Shown: positions 27,187-38,522 of the stretch, piece by piece
Position numbering within the stretch: position 1 is the stretch's first letter
Layout: each line of letters starts with the position of its first letter
From: Prauserella flavalba
GTDB lineage: Bacteria; Actinomycetota; Actinomycetes; Mycobacteriales; Pseudonocardiaceae
DNA length: 64,000 nt
Assembly: GCF_003202235.1 (NCBI RefSeq)
Contig: NZ_MASU01000005.1
Location: 868,001 to 932,000, forward strand
Direction: 5' to 3'
Made by a program: the position numbers and the translations under genes
Notes under the pieces: generated by a model
What the model was told of the DNA's origin: nothing
The model's input: only the letters and a program-made list of their open reading frames with translations
The model's database searches: none

Positions 27187-28134
27187 GTGACGACCGCTCC
27201 TTTGGCGCTGCTCGACGCGGCAAGCCTGTATTTCCGTTCGTTCTACGCGCTGCCGGACACGATGACCGCGCCCGACGGCACGCCCGTCAACGCCGTGCGT
27301 GGGTTCGCCGACACGATCGCGCGGATCATCGTCGACCGGCGTCCGTCGCGGCTGGTCGCGTGTCTGGACGCCGACTGGCGGCCGCAGTTCCGGGTGGACG
27401 CGCTGCCGAGCTACAAGGCGCACCGCGTGGCCGAGGTCGCCGACGAGGGGGTCGATGTCGAGGAGGTGCCGGACACGCTCACCCCGCAGGTGCCGATCAT
27501 CCTCGATCTGCTGGAGGCGGTCGGGCTGGCGACCGCCGAGGCGGCGGGTTTCGAGGCCGACGACGTGATCGGCACCCTCGCCACGCGGGAGGCCACCGAC
27601 CCGGTCGAGGTGATCACCGGCGACCGCGATCTCTTCCAGCTCGTGCGCACGGAGCCGACGCCGACCTCGGTGATCTACGTCGGCAAGGGCTGGGCCAAGG
27701 CCGAGGTGCTGGGCCCCGCCGAGGTCGGCGCCCGCTACGGCGTCCCCGCCGAGCACGCCGGGCCCGCGTACGCGGACATGGCGATGCTGCGGGGCGATCC
27801 CTCGGACGGCTTGCCGGGCGTGGCCGGTATCGGGGAGAAGACCGCGGCCAAGCTGATCACGCAGTTCGGCTCGCTCGAGGCACTGGTCGAGGCCGCGCGC
27901 AAGGAGAGCCCCCAGCTGCCGTTGAAGACGCGGACCAGGTTGAACGAGGCCGCGGACTACCTGGCGGTCGCGCCGACGGTGGTGCGCGTGGCCGAGGACG
28001 CGCCGGTGGTCCAGTCCCGCGACGACCGGGTCCCCGACGGGCCCGCCGATCCGGACCGGGTGGCCGAGCTCGCGGAGCGCTGGAACCTCGGCAACTCCGT
28101 CAAACGCCTGCTCGACGCGCTCTCCGCTCGCTAG
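27187..28134 (+). CDS. 5'-3' exonuclease (PolA N-terminal-domain-like)
   Basis: Flap-endonuclease-type nuclease of 315 residues similar to the 5'-3' exonuclease domain of DNA polymerase I. Metal-binding acidic residues are seen in 'LALLDAASLYFRSFYALP', 'AGFEADDVIGTLAT' and 'VEVITGDRDLFQLV'. A helix-hairpin-helix 'DGLPGVAGIGEKTAAKLI' near 205 binds DNA. It likely removes RNA primers or flaps. GTG 27187 is chosen; GTG 27181 is equally possible. Its TAG stop shares a CTAG tetranucleotide with the stop of the convergent Rieske gene. Confidence 0.9.
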   Translation: MTTAPLALLDAASLYFRSFYALPDTMTAPDGTPVNAVRGFADTIARIIVDRRPSRLVACLDADWRPQFRVDALPSYKAHRVAEVADEGVDVEEVPDTLTPQVPIILDLLEAVGLATAEAAGFEADDVIGTLATREATDPVEVITGDRDLFQLVRTEPTPTSVIYVGKGWAKAEVLGPAEVGARYGVPAEHAGPAYADMAMLRGDPSDGLPGVAGIGEKTAAKLITQFGSLEALVEAARKESPQLPLKTRTRLNEAADYLAVAPTVVRVAEDAPVVQSRDDRVPDGPADPDRVAELAERWNLGNSVKRLLDALSAR

Positions 28135-29138
28135 ACCGAGCCGGTGCGCAGGGCGTAGCGGCGCTCGGCGTAGGCGAGATCGTCCCGCCACAGCCGCGCC
28201 GCGACCCTGCGCATCACCGGCCGCACGAGTGGAGCCAGCGAGCGCGCCACCGCGAAGCCCGTGCGTGGCGACGTCGCCACGGTGGCCTCCAGCACCGCCG
28301 TGCGAGGCCTGCCGTCGGCGCCCGGGCCCAGCGGGGTCGCGTGGGTCTCGACGACGCTGCCCTCCCCCTCGCCCGAGACGATCCGCATCACGACCGTGCG
28401 CGGCTCCGGGGCCGTGAACTCGGCGCGCACCGGCACGCCGAAGCGCCCGCCCACGCGGAACGTCACATCCACCAGGAACCGGTCGTCGCCGTCGACCGCG
28501 CCCGGCTCCGGGGCCCGCACGACCGTCAGGCGGGTGAACGAGTACGGGTGGAACCACGCGCCGTGCCACGGATCGAGGCGGTTGGCCACGACGTCGCACG
28601 GCTCGCACACGCCCTCCAGCCTGGCCACCGCGGAGAGCGCACCCGGCAGTTCCGGCCGGGCGGGCAGCACCGGCCGCGGGGTCGGCGGTTCCCCGCCCTC
28701 GGCGTCGAGCCGCACCCAGGCGAGCACGCCGTCGTCGTGTGCGGGCAGCGGTCGCCAGCCCCGGCCGCCGCCCGGCGGCACCGCGAGGCCGTGCCAGCGG
28801 CACACGACCTCACCGCACACCACGCGGCCCTGCGCCAGCGGCGCACCGAGGTGCGGGCAGGCACCGGGGCCGACGACGAGCCGTCCGGTGCCGTCCCGCC
28901 ACGCGACCAGCTCCCGGCCCGCGACCCTGGTCCCGAAGGGACGGTCGGAACGGATCGCGTCGGCGGCCGCGAACGGGAACCAGTTGCCCGACGGGCGGGC
29001 CTGCGCACGGTCGGCGGCCGCCTGGATGACGGCGGGATCGGCCTGCCCGACCGTCGGCCGCTGCCGGGCCCAGCGCGTGCGGGAGATCGGCTGCACCGGC
29101 CAGTGGGCAGGCCACCGCCGCTGAGGGTTGTCGCTCAC
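28131..29138 (-). CDS. Rieske [2Fe-2S] protein with DUF5914-like C-terminus
   Basis: A 335-residue Rieske-type protein. The cluster ligands CPH and CRWH are in 'GACPHLGAPLAQGRVVCGEV' and 'VCRWHGLAVPPGGG', near residues 93-118. The C-terminal half ('PWHGAWFHPYSFTRLTVVRA') resembles DUF5914, which I recall near actinobacterial carotenoid genes; no carotenoid genes are in this window. It lacks the usual catalytic mononuclear iron motif of ring-hydroxylating dioxygenases. Only 38 bp separate it from the upstream StyB-like gene on the same strand, so it could be the last gene of that operon. Confidence 0.82.
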   Translation of the reverse strand: MSDNPQRRWPAHWPVQPISRTRWARQRPTVGQADPAVIQAAADRAQARPSGNWFPFAAADAIRSDRPFGTRVAGRELVAWRDGTGRLVVGPGACPHLGAPLAQGRVVCGEVVCRWHGLAVPPGGGRGWRPLPAHDDGVLAWVRLDAEGGEPPTPRPVLPARPELPGALSAVARLEGVCEPCDVVANRLDPWHGAWFHPYSFTRLTVVRAPEPGAVDGDDRFLVDVTFRVGGRFGVPVRAEFTAPEPRTVVMRIVSGEGEGSVVETHATPLGPGADGRPRTAVLEATVATSPRTGFAVARSLAPLVRPVMRRVAARLWRDDLAYAERRYALRTGSV

Positions 29139-29176: not shown

Positions 29177-29692
29177 TCAGTAGAAGAACACGTCCTCCGT
29201 GAGCCCGGCGTGCAGCGCCCGGTAGCCGCCCGTGTAGAACAGCAGCGGGCTGCCCTCGCGGTACTCGAGATGCTCGACCTCGCCGATGAACAGCACGTGG
29301 TCGCCGGCCGGATGGCGGTCGACGATCCGGCAGCCGATCTCGGCGAGCCCGCCGGACAGGAACGCGTGGTCACCGCGCCACTGGAAGTCGGGCGTCAGGC
29401 CGGGGCACGGCCTGCCGCCGAAGTGGCGGGACAGTTCCTCCTGCTCGGCGGAGAGCACCGTGACGCCGTAGCGGTCGCCCCGGTGCAGGTGCTCGGCCAT
29501 CGTGCAGTTGCCGAGCGACACGAGCACGAGCGGCGGATCGAGCGAGACCGACAGGAACCCGTTCGCGGTCATGCCGTGCACGCCGCCCTCCGGCGGGGTC
29601 GTGGTGATCACCGTGACGCCGGTGGCGAAACGCCCCAGCGCGGCGCGGAAGTGGCGCGCACCGGTGACCGAGGGGCGCGGTCCGGCGATCAC
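29177..29692 (-). CDS. styB: StyB-like flavin reductase component
   Basis: NAD(P)H:FAD oxidoreductase of 171 residues of the HpaC/StyB family, which supplies reduced FAD to two-component monooxygenases. 'ALGRFATGVTVITTTPPEGG' near 14, 'GMTANGFLSVSLDPPLVLVS' near 40 and 'HLEYREGSPLLFYTGGYRAL' near 140 are typical. It starts at GTG 29692, overlapping the EthD gene stop by 4 bp (GTGA). It is the only reductase of the operon and presumably serves both StyA-like oxygenases. The symbol is by similarity and context. Confidence 0.87.
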   Translation of the reverse strand: MIAGPRPSVTGARHFRAALGRFATGVTVITTTPPEGGVHGMTANGFLSVSLDPPLVLVSLGNCTMAEHLHRGDRYGVTVLSAEQEELSRHFGGRPCPGLTPDFQWRGDHAFLSGGLAEIGCRIVDRHPAGDHVLFIGEVEHLEYREGSPLLFYTGGYRALHAGLTEDVFFY

Positions 29693-30000
29693 GTGCCCGC
29701 CACGGGCGCGTAGTGGATCACCTGCGCGCCGCCGGTGGCGTAGTTGGCGACGTCGGCGTTGACGGCCTTGCCCTCGTCGGAGGACAGCGCCGCGATCATG
29801 GCGTCCTGCGAGTCGAAGTCGCCCTCGAAGATCGCGAAATACGGGCTGTCCCCGCCACCGGCGGCCCGCACGTCGAGGCTGTAGCGCATCGCGCGCAGGC
29901 CGGGCAGCTTCGCGGCCAGCGGCAGGTGCGTGTTGACGTAGTACTCCCGGAAGTGGTCGGGGTCGGCGGGCGGCGGGTACAGCACGGTGAGGCGGTACAT
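29689..30000 (-). CDS. EthD-family small protein
   Basis: A 103-residue dimeric alpha+beta-barrel protein of the EthD type. 'YRLTVLYPPPADPDHFREYY' and 'HLPLAAKLPGLRAMRYSLDV' carry the family's N-terminal strand and the conserved His-Leu-Pro. EthD proteins accompany oxygenase systems, and related small barrels act as cofactor-free oxygenases or isomerases. Here the gene lies exactly between a StyA-like oxygenase and its reductase, overlapping the latter. It may handle the unstable epoxide or hydroxylated product in place of an absent styrene oxide isomerase; that is inference. Confidence 0.8.
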   Translation of the reverse strand: MYRLTVLYPPPADPDHFREYYVNTHLPLAAKLPGLRAMRYSLDVRAAGGGDSPYFAIFEGDFDSQDAMIAALSSDEGKAVNADVANYATGGAQVIHYAPVAGT

Positions 30001-30023
30001 GCTGGGTTCTCCTCTCGGATCGG

Positions 30024-31247
30024 TCAGGATTTGGCGTGGCGGGCGAGGAACTCGCGGGTGCGCTCCGGGGTGGCGAGGATGCGCCACTGCCGGTCGGGGT
30101 AGTCGAAGTTGTCCGTGAACTCGTTGGCGACCGCCTGGTCCTGGCTCATCGCGCCGAAGAGCTGCAGCAGGTGCTCCGGCGGCGGCGTGAGCATGAAGTT
30201 GGTCCACTGGGCCGCGCCCAGCACGACGTCGGCTCTGCGTGCGGCGACCCGCTTGCAGAACTCCTCGTCGAGCGCGTAGTCGGCGAGGATCTCCTCGCCG
30301 GTGACCCACGCGGAGTGCGACGCCGAGTTGGCGCCCTGGCCCACCACGGGGTCCACCACCGTGTGCACGTCGCCGATCGCGAGCGCGTACTTGCCGTTCG
30401 GCAGCGCGGCGTAGTCCTGGCGCACGGTCGGGGTCAGTGCGCCCTGGAGGATGTCGAGCGGTCCGGTGAGCCCGAAGCTCGCCGGGTCGACGCGCTCGAA
30501 GGTCTGCGGGTGGTGCTTGGCGAGCAGGTCGAGCACGAGGCGCTCGTAGCCTGCTGGGTCCTCGTCGTAGGACTTGCGGCCGAGGATCTCCAGCTCGCCG
30601 CCGGGCACGTTCTCGAACAGCAGCGCCGTGGTGAACCCGGCGGCGCTGTACATCGGGATCTCCAGCAGCTCGCCGTGGCCGGGCGAGACGCTGATCGTGA
30701 CGCCCTTGGGCTCGGAGTAGGTGATGCCGTTGTAGAAGCCCACCGACAGCACGCGCTGCGGCTTGTCGTACGGGCTGTACTCGGGCCTGCGGGGGAACAG
30801 CGCGGAGAAGGCGCCCCGGCCGGCCGCCACGACGAGCAGGTCGTGCCGGTCGGCGATGGGCTCGATGTCCTCGGCCTGCAGCATGCGCACCTCGAGCGTG
30901 CCGCCGCGTTCCTCGAACGCCTTGGTGAGCCTGGGCAGGTAGAGGCGGTAGTCGATGGCGCTGGACCAGCGTGCGAAGTCGCCGCGGAAGGACAGCGGGC
31001 TCGGGCCGCCGACGTAGTGGTGGTGGCAGGAGTAGCCGTACTCCTCGACCGGCCAGAAGTGGACGTCGAGCTCCCGCTCGCGCTGGATGGTGGGGCCGTG
31101 GTGGGCCACGCTGTTGAGCAGCCTGCCGCTCGCGAGCTGGGCCGCGGTCTTGTCGGTGTAGATGGTGACCGGGACGTCGTGCTGCCGCAGCTTCAAGCCC
31201 AGCTGCAGGCCGGCGATCCCGGCGCCGACGATACCGATGTTCGGCAT
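30024..31247 (-). CDS. styA: StyA-type styrene monooxygenase, copy 1
   Basis: FAD-dependent group E monooxygenase of 407 residues, the epoxidase partner of StyB. 'IGIVGAGIAGLQLGLKLR' binds FAD near 4-21, and 'GDVHTVVDPVVGQGANSASH' near 300 is the second FAD motif. The active-site positions that I recall separating styrene from indole oxygenases read Asn-Val-His ('LLNSVAHH', 44-50), Tyr and His ('EYGYSCHHHY') and Ser ('SSAIDYRLY'), all of the styrene type. It sits in the operon after the aldehyde dehydrogenase (14-bp gap) and 23 bp before the EthD gene. Confidence 0.88.
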   Translation of the reverse strand: MPNIGIVGAGIAGLQLGLKLRQHDVPVTIYTDKTAAQLASGRLLNSVAHHGPTIQRERELDVHFWPVEEYGYSCHHHYVGGPSPLSFRGDFARWSSAIDYRLYLPRLTKAFEERGGTLEVRMLQAEDIEPIADRHDLLVVAAGRGAFSALFPRRPEYSPYDKPQRVLSVGFYNGITYSEPKGVTISVSPGHGELLEIPMYSAAGFTTALLFENVPGGELEILGRKSYDEDPAGYERLVLDLLAKHHPQTFERVDPASFGLTGPLDILQGALTPTVRQDYAALPNGKYALAIGDVHTVVDPVVGQGANSASHSAWVTGEEILADYALDEEFCKRVAARRADVVLGAAQWTNFMLTPPPEHLLQLFGAMSQDQAVANEFTDNFDYPDRQWRILATPERTREFLARHAKS

Positions 31248-31261
31248 GGTGCGTGCTCTCC

Positions 31262-32698
31262 TCACAGTCGCGTCCAGACGCTCTTGATCTCGGTGTACAG
31301 GGCGATGGCGTGCTTGCCCATCTCGCGGCCCCACCCGCTGGCCTTGAACCCGCCCCACGGCGCCGCGGCGTCGACGGGGTTGGGCATGTTGACGAACACG
31401 GTGCCGGCGCGGATGGCGGCGGCCAGGGAGTGCGCGGCGCCGACATCCCGCGTCCACACCGACGCGGCGAGGCCGTACTCGGTGTCGTTGGCCCTGGCCA
31501 CCACCTCGTCGGCGTCCTCGAACGGTAGTACGGCGAGCACCGGGCCGAACACCTCCTTCCGCGCGATGATCATGTCGTCGGTGACGCCGGTGAGCACGGT
31601 CGGCCGGTAGAAGTGTCCGTCACAGCCGACGAGCTCACCGCCCGCGGCGAGCCGCGCGCCCTCGGCGGCGGCTCCGCGGACGAGGGCGTCCACGGAGGAC
31701 AGGTGCTCCGCCGACACGAGGGGGCCGACCTGCGTCGCCGGGTCGAGACCGGGGCCGACGACCATCGCGTCGGCGGCCTTGCCGAGCCGGTCGGCGAACT
31801 CGTCGACCACGGACGCGTGCACGTAGAAGCGGGTGTAGGCGGCGCACACCTGACCCGCGTTGAGGAACCCGCCCTGCAGGCAGCCCTCCACGGCGGCGTC
31901 CAGGTCGGCGTCGGGCAGCACCACCACCGGCGCCTTGCCGCCGAGTTCGAGCGAGACCCGCTTGAGGTTGCCGGCCGAGGCACGCACGATCTCGCGGCCG
32001 ACATCGGTGGAGCCGGTGAAGGAGACCTTGTCGACGTCAGGGTGGGCGACGAGCGCCTTGCCCGTCTCCGGGCCGCCGGTGAGGACGTTGAGCACCCCCG
32101 CGGGCACCCCGGCGTCGATCATCAGCTCTGCCAGGCGCAGCGTGGTCAGCGGGGTCTGCTCGGCGGGCTTGAGTACGACGGTGTTGCCGCACGCGAGCGC
32201 GGGCGCGAGCTTCCACGAGGCGATCATCAGCGGGAAGTTCCACGGCGTGATCAGCGCGCACACGCCGATCGGCTCGCGGCGCGTGTACTGGAGCACGCCG
32301 GGGATCGACACCGGCGACGTCTCACCCTCGATCTTGGTGACCCAGCCCGCGTAGTAGCGGAAGTGCTCCGCGGCGGCGGCCACCGACACGTTCCTCGCGA
32401 TGCCGATGGGCTGCCCCTGGTCGCGGCACTCCAGTTCGGCCAGCTCGGCGGCGTGCTGGTCGATGAGGTCGCCGACGCGCCACAGGATCCTGGCCCGCGC
32501 GGCGGGGGTCAGCTCCGGCCACGGGCCCGAGGCGAACGCCGTTCTCGCCGCGGCGACGGCACTGTCCACATCGGCCTGCCCGGCGTCGGCGACGGTGCCG
32601 AGCGGGCGCGCCGTCGCCGGGTCGGTGGTCTCGAACCGCCCGCCCCCGGCCGCGTCGACCCACTGGCCGCCGATCAGCAGTTGCCCTGTCACGTTCAT
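31262..32698 (-). CDS. Aldehyde dehydrogenase (phenylacetaldehyde-dehydrogenase-like by context)
   Basis: NAD(P)-dependent aldehyde dehydrogenase of 478 residues. 'LITPWNFPLMIASWKLAPAL' near 150, 'VSFTGSTDVGREIVRASAGN' near 225, the general base in 'LELGGKAPVVVLPDAD' near 253 and the nucleophile in 'FLNAGQVCAAYTRFYV' near 287 are complete. In a styrene-type operon the expected substrate is phenylacetaldehyde, giving phenylacetate (the StyD or FeaB role). No phenylacetyl-CoA ligase is encoded nearby. The 63-bp gap before it contains an interrupted inverted repeat (ACCGG...CCGGT, 32714-32731), possibly an AraC-type site. Confidence 0.88.
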   Translation of the reverse strand: MNVTGQLLIGGQWVDAAGGGRFETTDPATARPLGTVADAGQADVDSAVAAARTAFASGPWPELTPAARARILWRVGDLIDQHAAELAELECRDQGQPIGIARNVSVAAAAEHFRYYAGWVTKIEGETSPVSIPGVLQYTRREPIGVCALITPWNFPLMIASWKLAPALACGNTVVLKPAEQTPLTTLRLAELMIDAGVPAGVLNVLTGGPETGKALVAHPDVDKVSFTGSTDVGREIVRASAGNLKRVSLELGGKAPVVVLPDADLDAAVEGCLQGGFLNAGQVCAAYTRFYVHASVVDEFADRLGKAADAMVVGPGLDPATQVGPLVSAEHLSSVDALVRGAAAEGARLAAGGELVGCDGHFYRPTVLTGVTDDMIIARKEVFGPVLAVLPFEDADEVVARANDTEYGLAASVWTRDVGAAHSLAAAIRAGTVFVNMPNPVDAAAPWGGFKASGWGREMGKHAIALYTEIKSVWTRL

Positions 32699-32761
32699 GT
32701 GCTCAGCCTGGCAACCGGCCCCGTGTCCGGTCTTTGCCTGAGGCGAACGGTTCTTGACGAT

Positions 32762-33727
32762 TCACGTACCGGCCAGCGCCCTGGCCCGGAACTCGCGCGG
32801 GCTGAGCCCGTAGGCGGCCTTGAAGGCGCGGCTGAAGTGCGCGGCGTCGGGCAGGCCCCACGCCGCCCCGACCGCGCTCACCGGTTTGGCGAGCGTGCCG
32901 GGCACTGCGAGGTCGCGGCGGCACTGTTCGAGCCTGCGGGTGCGGATCCAGCCCGCCACGCCCGCGCCCTCCTCGGCGAAGAGCTTCTGCAGGTAGCGCG
33001 TGGACACGTGCAGTGCGGCCGCGACGGCGTCCGGGCACAGGCCGGGGTCGTCGAGGTGCTCGTCGATGAACGCCTTCGCGCGGGCCACGAGCGCGGCGTG
33101 CGGCACCTCGGCCGGTGCCGCGATGCGTTCGGACAGCAGTGCCGACAACAGGTCCAGCACCGCGTCGGCCAGCGACAGCGTGGCACCGGGCGTCGTGCCG
33201 CCGAGCCTGCCGAGCAGGCGCAGGAACAGCGGGGCGAGCAGCGAGCCGGTGTCGTCGTCGCGGGCGATGCGGTGGGCGAGCACGTGCCGCTCTCCCCCAC
33301 CGGGAACGCGCAGCCGTTCGCGCGGGAACATGAACACCGCCATCGTGGTGGCCTCGGGGAACGCGAGCGTGTAGGGCCGGTCGGTGTCGTAGAGCGCGAA
33401 GTCTCCTGGCGAGAGCATCGCCTCGTTGCCGTCCTGCACGAGCAGGCAGCTGCCGGTCAGCTGGAGCCCGAGCTTGTAGTAGCCGCGCTCGCTGCGGGCG
33501 ATCATGGGCCGGGTGCGCCGGACCCGGTGCGCCTGAGCGTCCACTCTGGACACCAGGAGCGCGCCGAGCCGGTCGATGCGCACCTCGCCGTGGAACTCCG
33601 GCGCCTGCGCCACGGCGTCGAGCGGCACGAACGCGTCGGAGATGACGTGGCGCCAGTAGTCGACGCTCTCGCCGCCCGCCACGTCGTCGGTGTTCAGTAC
33701 GGTGCTGCCGATCGCTGGATGGACCAC
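32762..33727 (-). CDS. AraC-family transcriptional regulator (FeaR-like)
   Basis: A 321-residue AraC-type activator. The N-terminal AraC_binding_2-like domain ('YYKLGLQLTGSCLLVQDGNE', 'LSPGDFALYDTDRPYTLAFP', about 95-140) is followed by two helix-turn-helices: 'CPDAVAAALHVSTRYLQKLF' and the conserved 'DAAHFSRAFKAAYGLSPREF' near the end. The architecture resembles FeaR, which activates a phenylacetaldehyde dehydrogenase gene; here the dehydrogenase is next in the operon. GTG 33727 has an excellent GGAGGA site. It lies inside the 3' end of the upstream StyA-like gene (34-bp overlap), indicating translational coupling. Confidence 0.88.
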   Translation of the reverse strand: MVHPAIGSTVLNTDDVAGGESVDYWRHVISDAFVPLDAVAQAPEFHGEVRIDRLGALLVSRVDAQAHRVRRTRPMIARSERGYYKLGLQLTGSCLLVQDGNEAMLSPGDFALYDTDRPYTLAFPEATTMAVFMFPRERLRVPGGGERHVLAHRIARDDDTGSLLAPLFLRLLGRLGGTTPGATLSLADAVLDLLSALLSERIAAPAEVPHAALVARAKAFIDEHLDDPGLCPDAVAAALHVSTRYLQKLFAEEGAGVAGWIRTRRLEQCRRDLAVPGTLAKPVSAVGAAWGLPDAAHFSRAFKAAYGLSPREFRARALAGT

Positions 33728-34962
33728 GTCGTCCTCCGATCTCCTTCTGCTCGGTCCCCGGCGAGGAACTCCCGCTGACGCCGTGGCGTCGCGAGCAGCC
33801 GCCACTGCCGGTCCGGGTGGTCGAAGTTGGTGGTGAACTCGTCGGCGCGACGTTGGTCGGCCGCGAGTGCGCGCAGCAGTTCGGGGATGCGGGGCGGCGG
33901 GTCGAGCATGAGGTTGGTCCACGCCGACCCCGCGAGCAGGACCTCTTCCCTGGCGCGCGCGACCCGCAGGCAGAACTGTTCGTCGTAGACGGTGTCGGTG
34001 ACGATCTCGGCGGCGACGACGGCCGCGCTGTAGGCGGCGAGGTTGGCGCCCTGGCCCATCACCGGGTCCACCACCACGTGGGCGTCGCCGAGCGCGAGGG
34101 CGAACTTCTCGTCGCCGAGCGGCAGGTAGTCCTCCCGCACGGCGGGGATGACGCCGCCCTGCAGCAGGTCCAGCGGGTGGGTCAGGGCGAACTCACGTTC
34201 CTCGACGCGTTCGCGGGTCGCGGGGTGGTGCACGGCGAGCGCGTCGAGCACGGCGCGGTGGAACCGGGCCGGGTCGTCGTCGTAGGGCAGGCTCGCGAGC
34301 CCGGCGAGGTCGCCGTCGGGCTCGTTCTCCAGCAGCAGCGCCGTCACCGGTCCGTGCCTGCTGAGGATGGGGATCTCCAGCAGCTCGCCGTGACCGGGCG
34401 CGACGCTGATGCCGACTCCGGCGGGCTCGGGCGCGCGGACGCCGGTGTAGAGCCCCGCGCACAGCAGCCTGCGCGGGGCGTCGTGCGGGCAGTGTTCCGG
34501 TCTGCGGGCGAACAGACCGCTCAGCGGGCCCCGGCCGGAGGCGACCACCACCAGGTCGTGCTGCGCGCCGAGCCGGGCGAGGTCACGGGGGCCGATGTCG
34601 GCGACCACCGGCTTCGCGCCGCGGTCGGCGAGGTCGGCGGCGACGCGGGGCAGGTAGAGGCGGTGGTCGACGGCGCAGGACGGGTTGGTGAAGTGGCCGG
34701 TGAAGCGCACCGGCTCGGCGCCGCCGAGGTAGTGGTGGTGAGCCGCGTAGCCGTATTCCTCCGCGGGCCAGTGATGCACGCCGAGCGCGCGCTCGCGTTC
34801 GAGCATCGGGTGGTGGTGGGCGACCGTGTTGAGCAGCCGCGCACCGGCGAGGTCCTCGAGGGGGTGCTCGGTGTAGAGCGTCACGTCGACGTCGGCAGCA
34901 CGCAGGGCGAGGCCGAGATGCAGCCCCGCGACCCCCGCACCGACGATGCCGACCGTTGCCAT
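33694..34962 (-). CDS. styA: StyA-type styrene monooxygenase, copy 2
   Basis: Second StyA-like FAD monooxygenase, 422 residues, and first gene of the operon. By eye about half of its positions match copy 1. 'VGIVGAGVAGLHLGLALR' and 'GDAHVVVDPVMGQGANLAAY' bind FAD. The fingerprint is again styrene-type: Asn-Val-His in 'LLNTVAHHH', Tyr and His in 'EYGYAAHHHY', Ser in 'PSCAVDHRLY'. A 20-residue basic tail after the family C-terminus arises where the frame overlaps the AraC gene. ATG 34962 follows GGGAAG. It diverges from the IclR gene and has an operator-like repeat just upstream. Confidence 0.87.
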   Translation of the reverse strand: MATVGIVGAGVAGLHLGLALRAADVDVTLYTEHPLEDLAGARLLNTVAHHHPMLERERALGVHHWPAEEYGYAAHHHYLGGAEPVRFTGHFTNPSCAVDHRLYLPRVAADLADRGAKPVVADIGPRDLARLGAQHDLVVVASGRGPLSGLFARRPEHCPHDAPRRLLCAGLYTGVRAPEPAGVGISVAPGHGELLEIPILSRHGPVTALLLENEPDGDLAGLASLPYDDDPARFHRAVLDALAVHHPATRERVEEREFALTHPLDLLQGGVIPAVREDYLPLGDEKFALALGDAHVVVDPVMGQGANLAAYSAAVVAAEIVTDTVYDEQFCLRVARAREEVLLAGSAWTNLMLDPPPRIPELLRALAADQRRADEFTTNFDHPDRQWRLLATPRRQREFLAGDRAEGDRRTTWSIQRSAAPY

Positions 34963-34980
34963 CGCACGCTTCCCGTCAGT

Positions 34981-34997
34981 TGCTCTATTATCGAGCA
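34981..34997. promoter_or_regulatory. Operator candidate in the styA/IclR divergent region
   Basis: TGCTC-(7 nt)-GAGCA is an inverted repeat 19 bp upstream of the copy-2 styA start. A related half-conserved site (TTCTC-TAAGC-GAGCA) follows at 35003-35017. On the minus strand the spacer contains GATAAT, a good -10 element for styA, so a bound IclR-type protein would block or control that promoter. Confidence 0.55.
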
Positions 34998-35070
34998 GCA
35001 CGTTCTCTAAGCGAGCACACCGTACGACGCGCCCAGCGGGCGCACAACCCCGGGTGGAGGCGAGCGATCC

Positions 35071-35742
35071 GTGGCGGAAGCCAAGGTGGCCGGACTGCAG
35101 ACCCTGGAGCGTGGCCTGTCGGTGCTGGAGGCCGTCGCCGCGCACGGGCCCTGCACCGCGGCCCAGGTCGGAGAGGCGACCGGGCTGCACCGCTCCATCG
35201 CCTACCGCGTGCTGTGCACGCTGGAGGCGCGTGGCTACCTGCGCCGGGGCCAGGGCGGCCGGTACGAGGTGGGGCTCGCGGTGCTCACCGTCGCCTCGGC
35301 GGTGCATTCCGACCTGCAGGCACTCGCGCACGCCGAGCTGAGCACCGTCGCGGAGGCCACCGGCACCACGGCGTTCCTCGCCGTGCCGCACGGCGACGAC
35401 GCGCTGACGCTGGTGACCGTGGAGCCACCCGCGGCCAGGGCTCCGGTCTCCTACCGGCCGGGGGTGCGGCACCCGCTCACCCGCGGCGCGCCCGGCCTGG
35501 CGATCCTCGCCGCGCAGCCACCGCGTGCGGGCGAACGGCCCGAGGTGACGCTCGCCCGCGACCTCGGCCACGTGCGTACCAGCGGCGAGGTGGTGCCCGG
35601 CATCAGCTCGCTCGCGGTCCCCGTCCGGCTGCGCGCGGGCCGGGTCGCCAGCGTGTGCGTGCTGTTCGTCGCCGGGCGCTTCGACGAGACCGCGGCGCTG
35701 GAGCGGCTCCACGCCGCCGCCGACCGCCTGCGGGGGAACTGA
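35071..35742 (+). CDS. IclR-family transcriptional regulator
   Basis: IclR-type regulator of 223 residues. The winged helix ('CTAAQVGEATGLHRSIAYRV', about 28-48, then 'LEARGYLRRGQGGRYEVGLA') precedes the effector-binding domain ('HAELSTVAEATGTTAFLAVP', 'PLTRGAPGLAILAAQP', 'VVPGISSLAVPVRLRAGRVA'). IclR proteins commonly control aromatic catabolism genes from a divergent position. Here it is divergent from the styA operon with a 108-bp shared control region containing inverted repeats. It starts at GTG 35071 after GGAGG. The effector is probably a pathway substrate or product. Confidence 0.9.
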   Translation: MAEAKVAGLQTLERGLSVLEAVAAHGPCTAAQVGEATGLHRSIAYRVLCTLEARGYLRRGQGGRYEVGLAVLTVASAVHSDLQALAHAELSTVAEATGTTAFLAVPHGDDALTLVTVEPPAARAPVSYRPGVRHPLTRGAPGLAILAAQPPRAGERPEVTLARDLGHVRTSGEVVPGISSLAVPVRLRAGRVASVCVLFVAGRFDETAALERLHAAADRLRGN

Positions 35743-37403: not shown

Positions 37404-38522
37404 ATGAAGACCAAGGGTGCGCTGCTGTGGGAGCCGGGGACCAACTCCGGGTGGAGCGTCGAGGACATCGAGATCGATCCGCCCAAGGAACGCGAGGTAC
37501 TGGTCAAGCTCGCCGCCTCGGGCATCTGCCACAGCGACCACCACCTCGACGATGGCGTGATCCCGCTGCCGTGGGCACCCATCCTTGGCGGCCACGAGGG
37601 CGCGGGCGTCGTCACCGAGGTCGGGCCCGGCGTCACCGACGTCGAGGTCGGCGACCACGTGGTCCTGTCGTTCCTCCCCTCGTGCGGCAAGTGCACGATG
37701 TGCGTCGCCGGCCGCAGCAACATGTGCGCACTCGGCGCGGGCGTGCTCGCCGGCACCGCCCCCGACGGCACCCACCGCGTGCACGCCAGGGGCAAGGGCG
37801 TCGGCTGCATGTCCTACCTGGGCACGTTCAGCCCCTACGTGTGCGCGCCGCTCGACGCCACGATCAAGATCGACCGCGACATCCCGCTCGACAAGGCCGC
37901 CCTCATCGGCTGCGGCGTCCCGACCGGCTGGGGCTCCTCCGTGTACGCCGCCGACATGCAGCTCAACGACACCGTCGTGATCGTCGGCACCGGCGGCGTC
38001 GGCATCAACGCCGTACAGGGCGCCCGCCACAAGGGGGCGCGCAACATCATCGCCATCGACCCGGTCGAGTTCAAGCGCGAGTCCGCACTGCGCTTCGGCG
38101 CCACCCACGCCGTCAGCGACTACGCCGAGGCCGCCCAGCTGGTCGAGCGCATGACCGACGGCCAGGGCGCCGACCGCGTGATCGTCACCGTCGGCGTCGC
38201 GCACGGCAACCTCATGAACCCGGCCCAGGAACTCACCCGCCGCGGCGGCGTCATGGTCCTCACCGCGGCCGCCCCGCTCACCCAGCGCGACGTGGACTTC
38301 GACCTGTTCACCTTCGCCATGTCCGGCAAACGGCTCCAGGGCTGCCTCTACGGCAGCACCAACTCGCGCAACGACGTGCCGGTGCTGCTGGACCTGTATC
38401 GCGACGGCAAGCTCATGCTCGACGAACTGGTGACCAAGACCTACGACCTGGAGGACATCAACCAGGCGTTCACCGACCTGCAGGAGGGCAAGAACCTCCG
38501 CGGCGTGATCATGTACGACTGA
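37404..38522 (+). CDS. NDMA-dependent (mycofactocin-associated) alcohol dehydrogenase
   Basis: Zinc-type medium-chain dehydrogenase of 372 residues in the NDMA-dependent group, whose nicotinamide stays bound and is reoxidised by the peptide-derived cofactor mycofactocin. 'ASGICHSDHHLDDG' near 40 and 'LGGHEGAGVVTEVG' near 62 give the catalytic zinc site. 'PSCGKCTMCVAGRSNMC' near 92-108 holds the structural zinc, and 'VVIVGTGGVGINAVQGARHK' near 192 binds NAD. The extended loop 'HARGKGVGCMSYLGTFSPYV' fits this family. No mycofactocin biosynthesis genes are in the window. The ribosome site is GGGAGA. Confidence 0.9.
   Translation: MKTKGALLWEPGTNSGWSVEDIEIDPPKEREVLVKLAASGICHSDHHLDDGVIPLPWAPILGGHEGAGVVTEVGPGVTDVEVGDHVVLSFLPSCGKCTMCVAGRSNMCALGAGVLAGTAPDGTHRVHARGKGVGCMSYLGTFSPYVCAPLDATIKIDRDIPLDKAALIGCGVPTGWGSSVYAADMQLNDTVVIVGTGGVGINAVQGARHKGARNIIAIDPVEFKRESALRFGATHAVSDYAEAAQLVERMTDGQGADRVIVTVGVAHGNLMNPAQELTRRGGVMVLTAAAPLTQRDVDFDLFTFAMSGKRLQGCLYGSTNSRNDVPVLLDLYRDGKLMLDELVTKTYDLEDINQAFTDLQEGKNLRGVIMYD

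What the first reader, a model, noticed from the sequence alone, without database searches (positions are those of the whole stretch)
29177..35742. Operon with two paralogous styrene-type StyA oxygenases sharing one StyB reductase
Seen: gene order styA(2)-araC-ALDH-styA(1)-ethD-styB on the minus strand with several overlaps, and a divergent IclR gene. Both StyA proteins have the residues I recall as the styrene fingerprint (Asn-Val-His, Tyr, His, Ser) and intact FAD motifs, and about half their positions agree by eye. Known sty loci usually have one StyA plus StyB, or StyA1/StyA2B with a fused reductase. Two full StyA copies split by a regulator and a dehydrogenase are unusual. They may have different substrates, form a heterodimer, or act sequentially.
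Basis: partly seen in the sequence, partly recalled or inferred. Interest (0 to 1): 0.8.

Follow-up and report, generated by a model that had tools for sequence, protein, structure and literature searches.

The report
Two-oxygenase styrene-type epoxidase gene cassette
A set of soil-bacterium genes that looks built to attack styrene-like chemicals carries two different copies of the oxygen-adding enzyme beside one helper reductase; the same set, with two matching switch-like DNA sites, turns up in related bacteria, so the double copy looks old and kept on purpose, but its chemistry has not been tested.

Summary
The window (an actinobacterium, Pseudonocardiaceae) encodes two full-length StyA-type oxygenases, 55% identical, both with the styrene-monooxygenase fingerprint, plus one StyB-like reductase, an EthD-family protein, a StyD-like aldehyde dehydrogenase, a FeaR-like AraC gene and a divergent IclR gene. 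It is no chance duplicate: the set iclR | styA_up-araC-[ALDH]-styA_dn-ethD-styB recurs in 11 of 390 family genomes (own included) and on Rhodococcus jostii RHA1 plasmid pRHL1. The two StyAs form separate, co-inherited clades under purifying selection. The ALDH is optional (5 of 12 loci). Two cassette-specific DNA boxes, one before styA_up and one after araC, suggest two transcription units rather than one operon. StyC, the styrene-oxide isomerase, was not found in the 11 genomes or pRHL1, so this is not canonical styABCD; the cysteine-free EthD protein is my candidate for handling the epoxide. Against: one locus has a broken styA_up, one is broken throughout, EthD is weakly constrained, and no activity is known. 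Substrate, heterodimer and cascade are untested. I call it a new variant of the two-component styrene-monooxygenase kind, with no description found in the papers searched.

The parts
33694..34962 (-). styA_up: StyA-type FAD-dependent oxygenase, 422 aa (upstream copy)
30024..31247 (-). styA_dn: StyA-type FAD-dependent oxygenase, 407 aa (downstream copy)
   Evidence: NF045732 546 bits; 3ihm E 5e-128; fingerprint NVHYHS
29177..29692 (-). styB-like short-chain flavin reductase, 171 aa, the only flavin reductase gene of the cassette
   Evidence: PF01613; NF045733 StyB 141 bits, under the 200 cut-off; nearest PDB sequence 1rz0 PheA2, then 4f07 StyB
29689..30000 (-). ethD: EthD-family protein with predicted dimeric alpha/beta-barrel fold, 103 aa, no cysteine
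31262..32698 (-). StyD/FeaB-like aldehyde dehydrogenase, 478 aa (optional member of the cassette)
   Evidence: best family NF045735 StyD, 572 bits, under the 850 cut-off; present in 5 of 12 cassettes
32762..33727 (-). araC: FeaR-like AraC-family regulator, about 321 aa (start codon inferred)
   Evidence: PF14525 + HTH_18; best NCBIfam FeaR 173 bits, under the 199 cut-off; 44% id to a regulator beside R. opacus 1CP styABCD
35071..35742 (+). divergent IclR-family regulator, 223 aa
   Evidence: PF09339, PF01614; beside styA_up in all 12 cassettes
34983..34995 (-). box 1: CTCGATAATAGAG, imperfect palindrome just upstream of styA_up; proposed IclR operator
   Evidence: exact in 10 of 12 cassettes, one mismatch in P. 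muralis, absent in G173; one hit in the 8.09 Mb genome at up to 1 mismatch
32729..32761 (-). box 2: begins ATCGTCAA-N5-GTTC, right after the araC stop; proposed AraC site and second promoter region
   Evidence: 12 hits of the 12 fixed bases in 740,388 bases, all at the araC/(ALDH or styA_dn) joint: 11 of 12 cassettes plus L044; one hit in the 8.09 Mb genome

Best explanation
A conserved catabolic cassette, probably moved between lineages, for an aryl alkene or similar compound. StyB reduces FAD with NADH; free FADH2 serves two specialised StyA epoxidases, which each make a flavin hydroperoxide and epoxidise an alkene. The two copies act on different members or stages of the same substrate family rather than being back-ups. 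Expression is in two units: IclR at box 1 controls styA_up-araC, and AraC at box 2 controls [ALDH]-styA_dn-ethD-styB. With no StyC found, the epoxide is opened or rearranged by the EthD-family protein or spontaneously; where present, the ALDH oxidises the resulting aldehyde to an acid, perhaps feeding the phenylacetyl-CoA pathway. Shown: gene set, conservation, two clades, selection, boxes, no StyC found. Inferred: chemistry, FADH2 sharing, regulation, EthD role, transfer.
For: Gene set in 11 of 390 family genomes (own included) plus RHA1 pRHL1, with differing flanks in P. muralis, A. acididurans, RHA1 and the other Amycolatopsis. Up and dn each one clade against the other groups, 100/99 and 100/97; Ka/Ks 0.06-0.26 (up) and 0.09-0.16 (dn) in five species pairs; pairwise distances up-dn r 0.96, as expected of joint inheritance. 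NVHYHS in all 22 StyAs of the 11 cassettes examined, G173 left out; 78 columns invariant over up, dn and six reference SMOs. StyA_up model fits 3ihm. Boxes 1 and 2. Sites like box 1 (2-3 mismatches of 13) lie in the iclR gap of 7 of 8 single-StyA relatives that have iclR but no araC, which ties box 1 to IclR; the box 2 pattern was found only beside araC. AraC resembles a regulator beside styABCD and ALDH resembles StyD. PaaA over its cut-off in 11 of 11 genomes, base rate in the family not tested. EthD 45-51% identical to an EthD inside a Phaeobacter sty operon.
Against: No activity, expression or binding data. ALDH missing from 7 of 12 loci. StyB and both StyAs are under curated cut-offs, so styrene itself may not be the substrate. 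StyA_up has a frame break in P. muralis; several genes and both boxes are broken or lost in G173, so the cassette seems dispensable in some lines. EthD is weakly constrained, Ka/Ks 0.12-0.82 in the five pairs, on few changes. Phaeobacter has EthD together with StyC, against EthD simply replacing StyC. The unit boundary rests on footprints chosen after seeing the alignments; read-through from styA_up is possible. Over its full 33 bases box 2 in RHA1 has 12 mismatches, no better than two chance hits in other loci; only the fixed 12 bases hold it.
Confidence: 0.55

Rival explanations
1. The two StyAs form an obligate heterodimer, or one is a structural or regulatory partner of the other.
For: styA_up was never seen alone: 11 of 11 family genomes with a styA_up orthologue (about 71% identity or more) also have styA_dn within 4 kb, and so has pRHL1; correlated divergence r 0.96.
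Against: A. acidicola keeps styA_dn without styA_up, and single-copy relatives exist; both copies keep the residues shared by all; araC, which need not touch StyA, correlates with up just as well (r 0.98). R. opacus StyA is active as a monomer (PMC4460183, passages).
Confidence: 0.15
2. Isozymes: both StyAs do the same reaction on overlapping substrates, kept for dosage or wider range under two promoters.
For: Same fingerprint, 55% identity, and a StyA fold for the copy modelled; the two copies sit behind different boxes.
Against: Copy-specific fixed residues near the pocket: 47 (T in up and SMOs, S in dn), 97 (R in SMOs, C in up, S in dn), 170 (V in SMOs and dn, A in up), 313 (Y in SMOs and up, H in dn); old split with a long stem for up.
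Confidence: 0.2
3. Ordinary styrene catabolism: a styABCD variant in which StyC lies elsewhere or is too divergent to detect.
For: StyA, StyB-like, StyD-like ALDH and a sty-type AraC are all here; PaaA present. Only plasmid pRHL1 of RHA1, not its chromosome, was searched.
Against: One StyC query found nothing in 11 genomes or pRHL1 while hitting both known StyC plasmids twice each; NF045734 gave none in the own genome, though its control genomes were also empty; three StyC queries found none in the fetched loci, no positive control in that run; ALDH optional.
Confidence: 0.1

Closest known systems
Two-component E1-type styrene monooxygenase StyA/StyB (Pseudomonas VLB120, Rhodococcus opacus 1CP styABCD)
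   Same: StyA fold, fingerprint NVHYHS, separate StyB-type reductase, StyD-like ALDH, AraC of the same family as one in R. opacus
   Different: two StyAs from separate clades outside the reference SMO clade; no StyC found; EthD in all 12 cassettes; IclR; two boxes; StyAs and StyB under curated cut-offs
StyA1/StyA2B (E2-type; IndA1/IndA2B in R. opacus 1CP, PMC13101518 passages; Variovorax VpStyA1/VpStyA2B)
   Same: two StyA-type oxygenases in one locus
   Different: reductase not fused here; indole-type fingerprint there (SQM..A in the S. angustmyceticus and Variovorax rows), styrene-type here; separate clade
Single-StyA relatives in the same family (iclR | styB-styA, L059 also with ethD; L058, L059, L067, L068, L098)
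   Same: IclR, StyB-like, StyA (59-65% to styA_dn), sites like box 1 with 2-3 mismatches
   Different: one StyA, no araC, no box 2, StyB before StyA
Phaeobacter inhibens sty operon (styA-ompW-flavin reductase-styC-ethD-ALDH)
   Same: StyA, flavin reductase, EthD (45-51% identical) and ALDH together
   Different: has StyC, one StyA, LysR regulator
Eth system (EthRABCD, cytochrome P450, Rhodococcus)
   Same: EthD protein beside a monooxygenase and an AraC regulator; EthD needed for activity in reconstitution (PMC7934444, passages)
   Different: P450 with ferredoxin reductase there, flavin oxygenase here; EthD here has no cysteine, so it cannot be an iron-sulfur ferredoxin

Membership tests
Group E styrene-type monooxygenase (StyA) | fingerprint N46-V48-H50-Y73-H76-S96 | tested here: met
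   both window copies and the 20 other StyAs of ten further cassettes; G173 not examined
Group E styrene-type monooxygenase (StyA) | StyA fold with Smoa_sbd domain | tested here: met
Group E styrene-type monooxygenase (StyA) | curated NCBIfam StyA cut-off (NF045732, 550 bits) | tested here: not met
   546.1 (dn) and 487.9 (up) bits
Group E styrene-type monooxygenase (StyA) | inside the clade of the reference sty-locus StyAs | tested here: not met
   the six references form one group, 100/100, without them; the wider SMO clan likewise in the smaller tree
Group E styrene-type monooxygenase (StyA) | epoxidation of styrene with FADH2 from a partner reductase | not testable with these tools
   needs purified enzymes
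Canonical styABCD operon | styrene oxide isomerase StyC | tested here: not met
   0 of 11 genomes and pRHL1, positive controls found; none in the fetched loci with three StyC queries, no control there
Canonical styABCD operon | phenylacetaldehyde dehydrogenase StyD | tested here: inconclusive
   best family StyD, 572 of 850 bits needed; 47% to R. oxybenzonivorans StyD; absent in 7 of 12 loci
StyB | curated NCBIfam StyB cut-off (NF045733, 200 bits) | tested here: not met
   140.9 bits; nearest PDB sequence is PheA2
E2-type StyA1/StyA2B | second oxygenase fused to a reductase domain | tested here: not met
   422 and 407 aa with no reductase domain; StyB is separate
Indole monooxygenase | fingerprint S46-Q48-M50-V/I73-I76-A96 | tested here: not met
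   NVHYHS; tree
EthD family (PF07110/TIGR02118) | family profile and dimeric alpha/beta-barrel fold | tested here: met

The most novel reading that the evidence does not exclude
A two-stage, feed-forward oxygenase cassette: StyA_up is a scout enzyme, expressed with its own activator araC once IclR lets go; the product of StyA_up is the ligand that switches AraC on, which then turns on StyA_dn, EthD and StyB for bulk conversion; and EthD is a soluble, cofactor-free epoxide isomerase standing in for the membrane enzyme StyC.
Probability: 0.12. Interest if true: 0.78.

Novelty: new variant of a known kind. Interest (0 to 1): 0.52.

Why it matters
Styrene-type monooxygenases are used to make chiral epoxides, and the described systems I know of have one oxygenase or a fused pair. 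A cassette that keeps two old, distinct StyAs with one reductase and no StyC that could be found gives a ready test of how paralogous flavin oxygenases split work, offers two unexplored epoxidase clades, and points to EthD, a family of unclear function that appears beside several monooxygenases, as a possible epoxide-handling enzyme. Because an orthologous cassette sits on R. jostii RHA1 plasmid pRHL1, it can be tested in a well-known laboratory strain.

Tried and rejected
Recent or decaying duplication: rejected by two separate clades, Ka/Ks 0.06-0.26 and conservation into Rhodococcus. Indole-type enzymes or E2 fusion: rejected by fingerprint, tree and length. One-clade origin of up plus dn (with L044) alone: rejected, AU p 0.0155, group named after a first tree was seen; with single-copy L047 and L076 added they form one clade, 96/81. 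EthD as iron-sulfur ferredoxin: rejected, no cysteine in 15 of 16 EthDs examined; the Phaeobacter one has 3. Neighbouring Rieske (DUF5914), MFS and ADH genes as members: rejected, of the other cassettes compared only P. endophytica has them in place. PDB 9j0h (Streptomyces vilmorinianum StyA): lacks V48 and H50 in the printed alignment, so it is not of our clade; that it belongs to the (R)-selective group named in PMC8944620 is my guess.

Literature: searches listed no paper on a two-StyA plus EthD cassette, judged by titles, abstract starts and the passages read. Listings were capped in some: 25 of 91 (29), 30 of 39 (30), 20 of 6,321 (36), 15 of 23 (60), 15 of 39 (61), 15 of 93 (96); whole in 37, 78, 79, 95. 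Only open-licence PMC papers are held. Read: PMC13101512 abstract, passages, sections 11 and 12; PMC13101518, PMC4460183, PMC7934444, PMC9416434, PMC8944620, PMC6345017 passages only; all others listing only.

Weak points kept: G173 (L056) is broken in several genes and has lost both boxes; a second StyA locus of the same genome (L057) is also frame-broken, so assembly error and decay cannot be told apart. One search scored at most four candidates a genome. Outside the family sampling was thin: 13 of 397 (order) and 8 of 394 (class) genomes matched at E 1e-90, own genome included; in these samples the best match outside the family was 58%. The one genome-contig scan used two short peptide patterns and gave 8 loci. 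My gene caller missed most RHA1 genes, iclR and araC among them; tblastn found those two. The other multi-StyA loci (L005, L061-L065) were only mapped and placed in the tree.
Full report

Is it conserved? A search of 390 family genomes with styA_up found 202 with some StyA-family match at E 1e-30, but only 11 (the window's own among them) with a styA_up orthologue at about 71% identity or more; at most four candidates were scored a genome. In all 11 the set iclR | styA_up-araC-[ALDH]-styA_dn-ethD-styB is present in that order (six of them seen through named contigs of the same length), and so it is on Rhodococcus jostii RHA1 plasmid pRHL1 (66% styA_up, 76% styA_dn), the only one of 53 plasmid records with a StyA-family match to exceed 60% identity to styA_dn. 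Of these 12 loci, 10 have both StyA frames open; P. muralis has a frame break in styA_up, and G173 is broken in several genes. The ALDH is present in 5 of 12. In the 11 loci compared (G173 left out) the cassette genes other than the ALDH are the only gene families found in more than six loci; my gene caller missed iclR and araC in RHA1, which tblastn found. Flanks are shared among most Amycolatopsis, or between the window and P. endophytica, but differ between groups, which fits movement between lineages. In P. muralis the neighbours are an HpaB-type hydroxylase, an intradiol dioxygenase and a muconate-cycloisomerase-like enzyme, an aromatic-catabolism setting.

Two old paralogues. In a tree of 65 StyA-family proteins the 11 upstream copies form one group (100/99) and the 11 downstream copies another (100/97, with single-copy L044 inside), both outside the group of six reference StyAs from sty loci and far from indole-type enzymes. 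Up and dn with L044 and two further single-copy relatives form one clade (96/81), while up, dn and L044 alone are rejected as a clade (p-AU 0.0155). Distances among the 11 loci correlate between genes (up-dn r 0.96, up-araC r 0.98), as joint inheritance gives whatever the function; up changes about 1.5 times faster than dn. Ka/Ks in five species pairs is 0.06-0.26 for up and 0.09-0.16 for dn; EthD is looser at 0.12-0.82, on few changes. So both StyAs are kept by selection and travel together. Fixed differences include V211L in both copies relative to the six SMOs, V170A and Y101H in up, T47S and Y313H in dn, and R97 to C (up) or S (dn). Positions 170 and 211 are among those predicted by docking to contact FAD in StyA (PMC6345017, passages); 47 and 97 adjoin fingerprint positions. 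This suggests different pockets, from each other and from styrene enzymes, but it is inference.

Two control boxes. Aligning the iclR/styA_up gap showed CTCGATAATAGAG, exact in 10 of 12 cassettes including RHA1, with one mismatch in P. muralis and absent in G173. In 64 loci (852,412 bases) it occurs exactly only at those ten sites, one of them seen twice because one locus repeats the window. In the window it is at 34983-34995; it occurs once in the 8.09 Mb genome with up to one mismatch. Several cassettes have a second, weaker copy starting 20 bases upstream. Of 8 single-StyA relatives with iclR but no araC, 7 have a site within 2-3 mismatches of 13 in the gap beside iclR (L057, L058, L059, L067, L068, L070, L098; not L101, scanned with a narrower pattern). 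Sites with 3 mismatches also occur elsewhere by chance, so the place, not the score, is the argument; it ties the box to IclR. A second box, ATCGTCAA-N5-GTTC, lies right after araC, before ALDH or styA_dn; in 740,388 bases of loci it occurs 12 times, all at that joint (11 of 12 cassettes, not G173, plus A. acidicola), and once in the own genome. Both patterns were chosen after seeing the alignments, so the counts outside the cassettes are the fair test. A. acidicola (L044) is a natural variant: two near copies of box 1 (one and two mismatches) stand directly before araC, box 2 before styA_dn-ethD, and styA_up, iclR and styB were not found in the 12.1 kb held, whose contig ends 1.5 kb beyond the boxes. 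The pattern fits IclR control of styA_up-araC and AraC control of the rest.

Judgement. What it does is open: I favour two specialised epoxidases fed by one reductase in two transcription units (0.55). The most daring reading, a scout-and-bulk cascade with EthD as the epoxide isomerase, is allowed by the anatomy but untested. It belongs to the known kind of two-component styrene-type monooxygenases and differs enough to be a new variant; I found no description in the listings searched, several of them capped.

Noticed in passing
L005:12070-14585 (own genome, contig 5, about 312-314.6 kb): A second tandem pair of StyA-family genes (410 and 410 aa), indole-type fingerprint (SQM..A), no fused reductase domain, grouping with IndA/StyA1-StyA2B-type enzymes in the tree.
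   Followed up: partly
window 28131-29138 (-): Rieske protein with DUF5914, 38 nt after styB and possibly co-transcribed, also next to the cassette in P. endophytica but not seen in the other cassettes.
   Followed up: partly
window 37404-38522 (+): NDMA-dependent alcohol dehydrogenase (TIGR03989, 525 bits over cut-off 440), of the mycofactocin-linked type as I recall.
   Followed up: no
L044:1539-2921: A. acidicola keeps near copies of box 1, box 2 and araC-styA_dn-ethD but has no styA_up: the box-1 pair stands directly before araC, as if styA_up had been lost.
   Followed up: partly
L063:7815-10929, L061 and L062: Further multi-StyA loci in another genus of the family: tandem styA-styA-styB in G265 and three StyAs within about 20 kb in G277, 55-64% identical to Pseudomonas VLB120 StyA.
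   Followed up: partly
L084:8154-8474: An EthD-family gene inside a canonical Phaeobacter inhibens sty operon next to styC; EthD may be an overlooked accessory of styrene-type pathways.
   Followed up: partly
L056 (G173): A cassette with broken reading frames in several genes and both boxes lost; a second StyA locus of the same genome (L057) is also frame-broken, so decay and assembly error cannot be separated.
   Followed up: partly
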